64,000 bases of DNA, from the NCBI RefSeq assembly GCF_026151205.1, contig NC_087076.1, positions 15,113,675 through 15,177,674 of the forward strand, in the 5' to 3' direction. The DNA is from Bolinopsis microptera. Its lineage: Eukaryota > Ctenophora > Tentaculata > Lobata > Bolinopsidae. Position numbers and translations under genes: made by a program. The first letter of the stretch is position 1. Every line of letters starts with the position of its first letter. Under the pieces are notes generated by a model that saw only the letters and a program-made list of their open reading frames with translations, did not search any database and was not told where the DNA came from. Below, one piece after another: positions 29,553 to 53,579 of the stretch.

Positions 29553-32500
29553 ATGGGTGTTAAGACTCAGAGGATGGCAGACAACACCCCCGGTACACCC
29601 ACCTACAGGGTTAAGCACTGGTTCCTCTGTTGTTTGGCACTCTGCCATCTTGCTGCCTTCTCATCGCTCTACGTCCAGTGGCCTGGTTAGTACACTTCTG
29701 TCGGAGTTTGTTTAAAAACCATCAATCATAACAAGCAGTTGAACTATGACCTATTGTACGCTTTATTGGATTTTAAACCGATCAAAGTTTTAAATTTTAA
29801 ATTTGTTGAAAATAAAACCGTTCTAAACTGTCTGATAATGTAGTGGGAAGTGGCTCCCTCCCACTTTCATAACTACTTACATCCTCCCAGGTCTGTACGG
29901 AGAAGATGGAGTGATGCCAGCTCATCAAGCCACCCCCACCGGGTTCAGTTTGAAGACTCTAGCTGCAACCTTCAATCTGCCTCTGAAAGAGACGGCCGAG
30001 TTAGTGTGTTTAGTTGGAACTGTTTTAGCTGGCCTCTTGACCGCCTTCCCAGCTCTGAGGGTCAGTCCTGCTTATGCCTTGTTGGGAGCACTCTATTTCA
30101 GCCTCTATCAGGTTAGTCAGACTCTGTTATTACCTTTTATGGTGTCTTACGGATATCCTGGTGCCAGGATAAATGATATAAGTTGCAGCTGTACCATTTT
30201 AGGTAAGAACAGTAGTGCCCACCAAATTTCCAGTAACTATAATTTGAACTATTTATATTGTTCTACCACTTGTTCTACCTGTATTCTAGACTAAGTGGAA
30301 TACTTGACAGTTATCACTACAGGTGGGGAGGAAGTTCCTTTGGTTTCAGTGGGATATTATCCTGTTAGAGACTACTTGTCTCAGTGTTCTTGTAGCCCCT
30401 CTCTTCCCCTCCAAAAAAAGGTATCAGTGTGTCGTTATATTATTGGATCTAGTCTATTTGTAGTGGATTTCTGTTATGACCTTAGCGTTGGTGGAGCGAT
30501 AAGTGCAGCGTTTACATTTCACAATCAAATCCCCACAATTTGCATAACTTTTAAGGAAATCTGCGCATTAAGAGTTAACTTATTTTACCTTACTCCACCC
30601 TCAGTTTGCCACATGACAACATCACGTTGTGGCTGGTGAGATGGTTGGCGTTCCGGCTGATGTTTGCGTCGGGTGTGGTCAAGTTAACCAGCGGCTGTCC
30701 GACTTGGTGGGGCCTTACTGCCATGAACTGGCACTATGAGAGTCAGGTCAGTTACTTTATTTCTGTTGTTGTTGATATTTTACAATTTATTTTCCTTTTT
30801 TTGCTCTCTTCTCTAATTTAATCTTCTAGTTATTTTTAATGTACTAATTATGATTTATCCCTCAGTGTATTCCGACACCGTTAGCTTGGTTTTCTCACCA
30901 GTCCCCCGACTGTTTTCACAAACTTGAGGTGATCGGAGCATACCTCATTGAGATAGTCTTCCCCTTCCTCTTCTTCGCACCTATCGCTGCTATGAGAGCT
31001 ATGGGTGTTTACGCTCAGGTAATAGTCATGCTGAGATTTTGCAGCACTGCAAATTTCGATCATCAGCTAGGGTTCTGATGAAAAGCAATGCCTTTCCTCT
31101 CCTAGCAGACTCCATGTCTATAGCTCACAAGAATCATAAAATTATGTTTCAATAACTTTAATACACACAGGTGTCCCTGATGTTGATGATCATGTTAACG
31201 GGAAACTACAACTTCTTCAACATGATAACATGTGGTCTGGTGATCACCTCCCTTGACGACTCCTACCTCCCCTCCGCTGCTACTCTAGTCACCTACCTCT
31301 CTCCTGTCTCTAGTGGGGGCCTGGGAGCTGTTGCTGCTCTTTTCAAACTACCGTTCAAGTTGCTGGTTGCTCTGGTGAAGATGCCGTATAGGGTTGTCGT
31401 TGGAGCTAGTAAATGTCCTGTCAGGTAGGAATATTTTGAGTGATTGGAAAGTCGGTGCGTTCTAAAGCATTAACTGATCTACATAGTTCTGTCATTATAC
31501 CCCAATAGTCGAATTAAAATTCCCTATCAATAACACTAATAGTAAATCCCCACCAGGGCGGTGTCCACAATAGGTATCCTGTCTGTTGTGGCTGGAGCGG
31601 GCTGGTTAATGAGGGTGCTGGGTGGAGTGGGGGTAGATGGTAACTGTGGTAAACTAACGTTTGCTAGACCCGAGTTGGAGTGGTTTCTATCCCACTCCGT
31701 TCCAATGGCTATTGTTATGGGCCTGGTGTCCCTTCTTGGAAATATTATCAGAGCTTACTACTTCACTTTGAGATCTACTGATAAGTCAAAGTTAGTGCAA
31801 CATTTGGTTATTTAGTTTTATTATTAACTACAGACCCCTGACTGTTTTATAGCTCCGACTACAACAAAAAAATAACAACTGTTTAAACTAAGTTGTTAGC
31901 CCATCCTTTTTGTATTGCAACTTTTATTTAATAGCTCTAACGAATGGCAAGTTAAAATATTAACCCATCCTTTTTGTCTTACAACTTTTGTTTTATTAAC
32001 CCAGACTTTTGTCACACAGTTTTTGTGCTACGAATGTTTACTGTGCACTAGGTAATGTGCCACAGACAGCCACACTAATGTTTGATGTGCACCAGGTAAT
32101 GTGCCATACTAATGTTTGATGTGCACCAGCTAATGTGCCACACTAATGTTTAATGTGCACCAGGTAATGTGCCACACTTATGTTTGATGTGCACCAGGTA
32201 ATGTGCCACACTAATGTTTACTGTGCACCAGGATGATAAAGCTGGGCGAAGTGATACAGACAAGTATAGTCTCGTGCGCTGTAATGACCATGTTTGCGGT
32301 GTCCTTGATGCCCATTACCGAACTTGACAGAGATACTCAGAACAAGATACCACTCTCGGTTCAGGAGCTCCATCATAGGTTTGTGGGGGGGGGGTCATCA
32401 TAGGTTTGTATTTTGCATATTTATCATAGGTTTGTAGGGGGGGGGGGGGGCCGGGGGTAATCATAGGTTTGTATTTTGCATATTTATCATATAATATATG

Positions 32501-51503: not shown

Positions 51504-53579
51504 TTACTTTGGTAGAACGTTGTCGATAAACCAGGACTGTATGTTCCCAGCGGGCCAGTAGTTAGCCACAGTTACAAATGTGTTACCAATCTGACCAGTC
51601 GCCACTCCCACTTTCCATGATCCTGCAACAATTGGTTTGAAGTATTATTTGTGCCGATAAAAAGCTATACTATGAACAGGAACATTTTATGAACATGTAT
51701 ATTTTATAAACAGGTACATTTTGTGAACAGGTACATTTTATGAACAGGTATTTTGAGAAATTAAAGATGTAGATTGCAAATTTAAATCGTAAAACGTCTT
51801 ATTATAGTCTTATTATAAAGTCAGATAACGAAACTGTCAAAAATTAAGCTTAGACCTTAATAAGCATAATGATTTGTAGTTATCAATTGAATCTTATGGC
51901 CTACCCTTCCAGATAATTTGACAGAAGTGTGAGTAATTGTTACTGTACTCATTACCTACCCTTCCAGATAAGTTGACAGAAGTGTGAGTAATTGTTACTG
52001 TACTCATTACCTACCCTTCCAGATAAGTTGACAGAAGTGTGAGTAATTTTTACTGTACTCATTACCTACCCTTCCAGATAAGTTGAAAGAAGTGTGAGTA
52101 ATTGTTACTGTACTCATTACCTACCCTTCCAGATAAGTTGACAGAAGTGTGAGTAATTGTTACTGTACTCATTACCTACCCTTCCAGATAATTTGACAGA
52201 AGTGTGAGTAATTGTTACTGTACTCATTACCTACCCTTCCAGATAAGTTGACAGAAGTGTGAGTAATTGTTACTGTACTCATTACCTACCCTTCCAGATA
52301 AGTTGACAGAAGTGTGAGTAATTGTTACTGTACTCATTACCTACCCTTCCAGATAAGTTGACAGAAGTGTGAGTAATTGTTACTGTACTCATTACCTACC
52401 CTTCCAGATAAGTTGACAGAAGTGTGAGTAATTGTTACTGTACTCATTTGCTTCGTAGTCAAATAATTCCTCCTCCTCATACCAGTTATTGATTACTCTC
52501 GTAGCTGCCTCGTGAGTAGACAGGGTACTATTACACGACTGTGAAGTTTAGTTGGTTTAAATCTGCTTTAATGTTTGGGTATAGTTCCAAGAGAAAATGC
52601 AAGTTCAATGGTTTTACTTTTAACTCAATACTCATATACACTGTACAGTGTACAGGGCCCACGAATTAGGAGTTTATATCATGATATTAGAATTTAGTTT
52701 AACAAATGATCATAATGATAATACCCACACCTGCACGTAGAGAGTCTCCCCCATTCCTCGATAACTATCGTGCTGTAGTTGGAGCTCGTGGGGCTCTTTA
52801 CCCTCGTTTATTTTCAGAATATGTGCCACCCTGTAGGGGATTAATGTGAAACATGTGTTGGTGTGAGGTGCGGTGGTTAAAGTTTTCCTGACCGACTCAA
52901 ACCTTTGGACTCAAGACAGAGAGTTCATTTTTAGCACAGGAACTGATTATTAACATGGTAACTGGCATTGGCAAGTCCATGACTTCAATAATTGTGGTAT
53001 ACAGATTACCATTTCTTTGATTGATTTTAGGATTAATTGCAGTATATTACCACTTCTTTGCGTGGTCCTCAAGCAGTTTGCTCCAAGAAAAACCAGGACT
53101 GTGATGGAGGGCTCTCAGTGTATTCATGTGCTCCAAACTGAACTGTTGGAACTCTCCCAGACTGAGATATTAAATTTAGTTGTGAAGTTTTTTGCTAATT
53201 AACTACAATTAACTAATTTTGTTGCTAATTGATTAATTGAAGTCTCACACTTCTCTTTTTTAGTTTAAACACAAATATTGTGAGAAAGTCCCAGAATACG
53301 GTTAGAAAATACTGTGTCCCAGTGTTCCATTGTTTTAATACCGGTTAAAGCTGGTCCAGGTCGTTTACTGTACCTTTCAACATCAGTAACTGGTTCGAGA
53401 GCAATGCTTTTCTCCAGTGGTACGCTGATCATGATGCACTGGAAGTGGTACACCTCCCCCGTATCTGGTCGAGTGTAACACGGAGCAAGCTGGGCCCCTT
53501 TGCCACATCTCATACATTTCTCTCCTTCCATCCCGTTCTGTAGTTGACGGTTGGGTTTTGTTGGAAGAGCAGAAAGCAT
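51504..53579 (-). CDS. GAPR-1-like CAP protein with N-terminal zinc-finger-like exon, copy 2
   Basis: Five exons with the same lengths as copy 1 (206, 111, 100, 139, 119): 53579-53374, 53161-53051, 52830-52731, 52538-52400, 51622-51504; about 224 residues. ATG at 53579 is chosen because it gives the paralogue's exon length; an in-frame ATG at 53618 would add 13 residues. Exon 1 has the CMRCG..C..YHFQC zinc-finger-like unit. CAP landmarks are LEHMNTLRALHHSP (the usual HN is altered), GMGETLYVQ, NNWYEEEELFDY, YSHFCQLIWK and ATGQIGNTFVTVANYWPAGN. It is intact. Its exon 4 donor lies at the end of a ten-copy array. Confidence 0.8.
51900..52450 (-). repeat. 55-bp array carrying the CAP2 exon 4 end and donor
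   Basis: Ten nearly identical units of period 55. In the gene sense each unit reads AATGAGTACAGTAACAATTA.. to TCTGGAAGG-GTAGGT, i.e. about 49 bases of exon 4 plus the donor. The exon-proximal copy (donor at 52399) is in frame with the CAP domain; nine more copies follow in intron 4. Confidence 0.95.

What the first reader, a model, noticed from the sequence alone, without database searches (positions are those of the whole stretch)
32042..52540. General pattern: splice sites embedded in tandem arrays
Four junctions in two unrelated gene families within 20 kb share this organisation. Established knowledge: tandem duplication of an exonic AG-GT segment is one proposed route of intron gain. Inference: in this genome minisatellite growth may be seeded at splice junctions, for example through R-loops or replication slippage at G/T-rich donors, with nonsense-mediated decay filtering misuse. 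I know of no described system with this regularity.
Basis: inference. Interest (0 to 1): 0.85.

Follow-up and report, generated by a model that had tools for sequence, protein, structure and literature searches.

The report
Tandem repeats spanning ctenophore splice junctions
In what appears to be a comb-jelly genome, short repeated DNA blocks lie across some borders between coding pieces and introns, so one gene can carry many copies of the same splice signal; this kind of structure was already described in the lancelet, and here it looks mainly like a by-product of a repeat-rich genome.

Summary
Four splice junctions in the window, two of one exon in an LMF2-like gene and one in each of two CAP paralogs, lie in local tandem repeats that repeat the splice site. 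Pfam supports the gene identities. The genome matches Bolinopsis microptera, a ctenophore, by size and longest chromosome.

It recurs: a 260-kb random sample shows more cases, three placed by homology (a METTL3 donor; an acceptor and a donor of an ABCB-like gene).

It is not undescribed: amphioxus "mirages" are the same structure.

Seeding at splice junctions is not established. Arrays spanning predicted junctions are about as frequent as array density predicts (8 vs 6.1, or 6 vs 6.4). Array edges within 15 bp show a weak, threshold-dependent excess (8 vs 3.3-3.5). A genome-wide word test favours seeding: arrays carrying donor-consensus words are 6-10 times commoner than arrays carrying four control words, but dispersed families blur it.

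Best reading: in-situ tandem duplication across old splice junctions, tolerated because the intact exon-side copy suffices. New member of a known kind.

The parts
32042..32232 (+). 34-bp tandem array in the LMF2-like gene; units carry an acceptor-like GCAC(C/T)AG mostly followed by GTAATG; array ends at the acceptor 32231|32232
   Evidence: TRF, layout; one match in the genome
32232..32378 (+). Exon of the LMF2-like gene flanked on both sides by repeats of its own splice sites
   Evidence: Open frame with its neighbours; LMF1_C match (7.9e-56) starts about five residues downstream of it; no PDB match
32372..32541 (+). Irregular repeat of exon tail plus donor ATCATAG|GTTTGT (junction copy plus four others), donor 32378|32379
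   Evidence: not listed by TRF
45057..45337 (-). 54-bp x 5.2 array over the donor of CAP paralog 1; last exon base 45326; 12 exonic nt in the array
   Evidence: one match in the genome
45326..45430 (-). CAP paralog 1 exon ending ...HFSQVVWKG; its 5' (acceptor) end is not resolved, upper coordinate approximate
51900..52448 (-). 55-bp x 10 array over the donor of CAP paralog 2; last exon base 52400; 49 exonic nt in the array
   Evidence: one match in the genome
52400..52510 (-). CAP paralog 2 exon ending ...HFCQLIWKG; its 5' (acceptor) end is not resolved, upper coordinate approximate
44083..44201 (-). Last CAP paralog 1 exon (GSWKIGMATAQIGNTFVTVANYWPAGN...) with stop
51504..51622 (-). Last CAP paralog 2 exon (GSWKVGVATGQIGNTFVTVANYWPAGN...) with stop

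Best explanation
These are mirage-type minisatellites. A short stretch that straddles, or ends at, an existing splice junction is tandemly duplicated in place, by slippage or unequal exchange, and the copy number then grows. The exon-side copy keeps the reading frame and is, by inference, the one the spliceosome uses; the other copies become part of the intron and are removed. Such arrays are tolerated at junctions because the exon stays intact, whereas an array wholly inside an exon would usually break it. The genome is rich in minisatellites, so many junctions are hit. Shown: repeat structure, junction positions by homology or frame, single-locus status of three of the arrays, recurrence in a random sample. 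Inferred: duplication mechanism, use of the exon-side copy, neutrality.
For: Arrays reach a variable length into the exon: 1, 12 and 49 nt at three window junctions, 2 to 26 nt at seven sample junctions, one of them ambiguous, as random duplication endpoints would give. Three window arrays match only themselves in a whole-genome DNA search, so they most likely arose in place. CAP paralogs share the intron position but not the unit, so the intron is older than the arrays. 14% of randomly sampled DNA is in arrays of period >=10, and junction-spanning arrays are about as frequent as array density predicts. Gapless alignment across the junction places the METTL3 donor (within RTGHW) and the ABCB-like acceptor and donor (within ATGSRVAT and EASGKTAA).
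Against: Edges within 0-15 bp of predicted splice sites exceed expectation (8 vs 3.3-3.5, P 0.02-0.03; for >=3 copies 7 vs 2.1, P 0.005-0.006). Spanning arrays of >=3 copies are 6 vs 3.1 (P 0.10) masked, 4 vs 3.1 unmasked. Arrays carrying AGGTAAGT or AGGTGAGT are 9.5 times (95% CI 4.9-17.9) commoner per Mb than arrays carrying four control words, 5.9 times (2.6-12.4) after merging by period and dropping the 44-bp family. These hint at more than chance. In the masked run the exon predictor found only 1 of the 4 array-borne window junctions against 12 of 21 other checked boundaries, so the local test undercounts. The sample array in L032 belongs to a dispersed family, so not every case is born in place.
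Confidence: 0.68

Rival explanations
1. Splice junctions, donors above all, are preferred seeds for minisatellite birth, for example because GT-rich donors favour R-loops or slippage.
For: Weak excess of array edges within 15 bp of predicted junctions; donor-consensus arrays 6-10 times commoner than control-word arrays, with no array of any of the four control words on the longest contig, where 5 and at least 9 donor-word arrays lie; two CAP paralogs hit at the homologous junction; METTL3 intron starts with about 970 bp of GTAAGTACAGT-like units.
Against: Spanning arrays are not clearly in excess in the sample; junction words recur less often (7 of 218 masked, 6 of 218 unmasked) than intron-interior words (about 8%); array units in the sample carry no clear excess of donor or acceptor signals; the one donor-word array seen in gene context (L032) has the word on the strand opposite the predicted gene and belongs to a dispersed family.
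Confidence: 0.2
2. The arrays are traces of intron gain by tandem duplication of an exonic AG-GT segment (Rogers-type).
For: Most units of the LMF2 acceptor array and of some sample arrays hold AG|GT.
Against: CAP paralogs share the intron position yet have different units and array lengths, so the intron pre-dates the arrays there. The window arrays lie at one end of the intron, next to other intron sequence.
Confidence: 0.03
3. Mobile introns or mobile minisatellites (introner-like) inserted at splice sites.
For: The L032 acceptor array has 87 matches, itself included, the others at 68-96% identity, on C1-C6 and C8-C14; GGTAAC and CCATGG words recur in several sample arrays.
Against: CAP1, CAP2 and LMF2 acceptor arrays each have one match, themselves, in the whole genome (that search skips very common words).
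Confidence: 0.05
4. The arrays have a splicing function, such as spare splice sites or a poison-type control of expression.
For: Wrong copies lead to early stops, so alternative use could lower expression.
Against: Nothing seen that needs it; stops soon after a donor are common by chance; no RNA data; unit sequences differ between genes.
Confidence: 0.04

Closest known systems
Amphioxus 'mirages' (Adh3, globins BflGb6 and BflGb9, TnC, PGBD5)
   Same: [quoted passage not shown] passage of PMC3902484).
   Different: Other phylum (ctenophore, inferred); here seen in several unrelated genes of a random sample; in amphioxus the Adh3 data and globin RT-PCR suggested undisturbed splicing and one globin array had 6 and 3 units in two haplotypes, neither of which could be tested here.
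Human internal tandem repeats at exon-intron boundaries in segmental duplications
   Same: Minisatellites of about 30-bp units, some at exon-intron boundaries (passages of PMC2812944).
   Different: There the repeats change or create introns in recent paralogs; here the intron position is shared and older than the arrays in the CAP pair.
Intron gain by tandem duplication (Rogers model; Drosophila and potato cases, search listing only)
   Same: Tandem copies of a splice-signal-bearing segment.
   Different: No sign that the introns here are new.
Introners / introner-like elements (search listing only)
   Same: Splice-signal-bearing repeats linked to introns.
   Different: Three window arrays have a single match in the genome.

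Membership tests
mirage (boundary-spanning minisatellite) | Tandem repeat spans an exon-intron boundary | tested here: met
   for the window (the LMF2 acceptor array reaches only 1 nt into the exon); for sample genes
mirage (boundary-spanning minisatellite) | Many units carry AG/GT splice signals | tested here: met
   GCAC(C/T)AG|GTAATG in 4 of 5 spare units, GTCTGGAAAG|GTAAGC in 5 copies, TCTGGAAGG|GTAGG in 10 copies
mirage (boundary-spanning minisatellite) | Authentic mRNA splicing is not disturbed | not testable with these tools
   No transcripts available
mirage (boundary-spanning minisatellite) | Copy number varies between haplotypes or cells | not testable with these tools
   One assembled sequence only
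introner | Similar copies at many introns of the genome | tested here: not met
   One match each for CAP1, CAP2 and LMF2 acceptor arrays; the L032 sample array is dispersed
intron gain by tandem duplication | Intron absent in close relatives or paralogs | tested here: not met
   CAP1 and CAP2 share the intron position with different arrays; other ctenophores and the other genes not tested

The most novel reading that the evidence does not exclude
In this ctenophore genome strong 5' splice sites act as preferred birth sites of minisatellites, so that the splice-site consensus is itself a mutational hotspot and introns grow from their donor ends by repeat expansion.
Probability: 0.2. Interest if true: 0.72.

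Novelty: new member of a known kind. Interest (0 to 1): 0.42.

Why it matters
It suggests that boundary-spanning minisatellites, reported for single amphioxus genes, also occur, and recur, in a very distant animal lineage, which makes their origin (neutral by-product or splice-site-seeded) testable genome-wide. It also warns that gene prediction in such genomes can choose the wrong copy of a splice site, and offers natural cases of one exon facing from 5 (CAP1) and 10 (CAP2) to roughly 87 (METTL3) donor-like copies.

Tried and rejected
Intron gain, introner insertion and spare-site function were considered and judged unlikely (see rivals). k-mer recurrence: 7 of 218 junctions (masked) and 6 of 218 (unmasked) of predicted introns recur nearby with exons scored >=3, against 8.0% and 8.4% of intron-interior words (70 introns); with score >=5, 4 and 2 of 152 against 7.0% and 6.1%: no junction excess. 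Placement null: overlap 5 observed, 4.0-4.6 expected (masked, exon score >=3); for >=3 copies and period >=18, 4 against 2.2 (P 0.11), and within 15 bp included 6 against 3.0 (P 0.02). First edge test was repeated with one more locus and with exons that are mostly array removed; the same automatic test on the window gave 2 against 2.9, because the predictor misses three of its four array-borne junctions. PWM test of array units: no enrichment overall; at the strictest setting (34 arrays of >=3 copies, donor score >=6) 3 against 1.4.

The word tests count arrays by eye from the rows printed: AGGTAAGT 7 arrays in 28.9 Mb and AGGTGAGT 9 in 17.6 Mb, where the listings ended (16 counts at 15 loci, since one locus holds both words); controls TGGAAGAT 11 and AAGTGGAT 7 in the whole genome, GATGATAG 8 in about 222 Mb (length of C10 assumed 15.2 Mb), TGGAGATG 5 in 106.8 Mb. 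Raw match counts (1260 and 1231 against 82, 100, 412 and 471; six reversed words 11 to 1064) are dominated by long arrays; the reversed words were not turned into array counts. L022 6392 was not counted as placed because it may be the stop of a nested ORF. L011 7676 looks like an INPP4-type gene from memory only; Pfam gave no hit. In one search two of my CAP1 boundaries (46537, 44203) were mis-specified and are left out of the recovery count.
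Full report
What the window is. The window lies at G000:C5:15113675-15177674 of a 264.65-Mb genome. Its contig C1 is 26.206 Mb. A table in PMC11797021 gives Bolinopsis microptera 265 Mb, 13 chromosomes and a largest chromosome of 26.2 Mb (passage); the same table gives 346 scaffolds against 232 contigs here. I take the genome to be that ctenophore; this is inference.

The observation. Exons were placed by frame, splice consensus and Pfam. The plus-strand gene at about 30.8-41.6 kb is LMF2-like (LMF1_C, 7.9e-56), and the minus-strand genes at 44-47 and 51.5-53.6 kb are CAP-domain paralogs (7.6e-17 and 2.2e-12). One LMF2 exon (32232-32378) has repeats on both sides: a 34-bp array that ends exactly at its acceptor and an irregular repeat of its donor. 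The LMF1_C match starts about five residues downstream of that exon; the exon itself is supported by an open frame through its neighbours and by recalled likeness to human LMF2, not by a database match (PDB: none). Each CAP paralog has an array over the donor of the homologous exon, 54 bp x 5.2 with 12 exonic nt and 55 bp x 10 with 49 exonic nt in the array. These are the four junctions of the finding. The 47-bp array at 38093-38706 is not at a junction.

What follows from the anatomy. The amount of exon inside the array differs from case to case, as expected if duplication endpoints fall at random around the junction. Three of the arrays match only themselves in the genome. The CAP paralogs share the intron but not the unit: local alignment score 19 against a shuffled mean of 11.9, reached by 2 of 300 shuffles, with the exon-derived end as the obvious shared part. 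So the intron is older than the arrays, unless both arrays descend from one that has since changed beyond recognition. Using any wrong copy would meet a stop 22, 8 or 5 nt after the true donor, and 1 nt after each of the five wrong acceptors.

Is it general? I drew 180 random places and could fetch the first 26; 36,618 of 260,000 bases lie in arrays of period >=10, against 3,092 of 64,000 in the window. Several arrays carry splice sites. Three junctions are placed by homology: the METTL3 donor (L010), where a solved METTL3 chain aligns without a gap across the junction and the intron begins with about 970 bp of GTAAGTACAGT-like units, and one acceptor and one donor, of different exons, in the ABCB-like gene of L026. 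Others rest on prediction only: L011 7676, L023 9274, L032 3931; L022 6392 is ambiguous.

Is there enrichment? I built a simple exon predictor and ran it with and without array masking. In the 26 loci, of 285 (masked) or 288 (unmasked) predicted junctions, arrays spanning the junction number 8 against 6.1 expected (P 0.27) and 6 against 6.4 (P 0.62). Edges 0-15 bp into the intron number 8 against 3.3 (P 0.020) and 8 against 3.5 (P 0.027). For arrays of at least three copies both classes together give 13 against 5.2 (P 0.003) and 11 against 5.3 (P 0.019). With exon score >=6 all arrays give 9 against 7.4 and 8 against 7.5, and arrays of at least three copies 9 against 4.4 (P 0.036) and 8 against 4.3 (P 0.068). 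Sixteen settings were run and no correction was made. In the masked run the predictor finds only 1 of the 4 array-borne window junctions but 12 of 21 other checked boundaries, so array-borne junctions are undercounted.

A word test across the genome gives 16 array counts (15 loci) with AGGTAAGT or AGGTGAGT in 46.6 surveyed Mb against 31 arrays for four control words in 858 Mb, a ratio of 9.5 (4.9-17.9); merging by period and dropping the 44-bp family leaves 5.9 (2.6-12.4). Single copies of the donor words are not clearly commoner locally (7 and 9 against 29, 9 and 12 for three of the four controls in 360 kb, both strands). But the survey covers only C1 and the start of C2 for the donor words, and the L032 array, one of the 16, is a member of a dispersed family (87 matches) and carries the word opposite to the predicted gene. 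In the sample, array units carry no clear excess of donor or acceptor signals. I conclude that seeding is possible but not shown.

Comparison with what is known. [quoted passage not shown] they were reported for Adh3, globin, TnC and PGBD5 genes (passages of PMC3087553 and PMC3902484; the 2002 Adh3 paper itself was not held). Human repeats at exon-intron boundaries are described in PMC2812944 (passages). A search for ctenophore with minisatellite gave two papers whose titles and abstract starts are unrelated; one for ctenophore, intron, tandem repeats and genome gave 24 papers, 20 listed, none announcing this; passages on tandem repeats and introns in three ctenophore papers did not describe it. 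So I found no report of the ctenophore case in this library, but the kind is known.

Verdict. Real and recurrent, most likely a neutral by-product of minisatellite growth across existing splice junctions, with an unproven hint of donor preference.

Noticed in passing
window 39724-41112: Large fold-back element in an LMF2 intron: inverted arms of 371 nt (97%) and 229 nt (99%), probably a transposon.
   Followed up: partly
window 36992-38005: A 338-codon open frame resembling a seven-transmembrane receptor nested in an LMF2 intron on the same strand; resemblance judged by eye.
   Followed up: no
L032:3728-3926 (G000:C1:10896414-10896612): A minisatellite family dispersed over many loci (87 matches including itself, others 68-96% identical, on C1-C6 and C8-C14); how arrays of one family come to lie on so many contigs is unexplained.
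   Followed up: partly
arrays in L011, L018, L026: Arrays at different loci share a CCATGG(T/C)AAC-like core; GGTAAC and CCATGG are among the words most over-represented in array units of the sample.
   Followed up: partly
L010:203-1170: The METTL3 intron begins with about 87 copies (80% matches) of an 11-bp unit that reads like a 5' splice site, GTAAGTACAGT.
   Followed up: yes
window 35127-35297: TC dinucleotide run of 86 copies in an LMF2 intron.
   Followed up: no
window 48916-48990: tRNA-Thr-like sequence, possibly the head of a tRNA-derived SINE.
   Followed up: no
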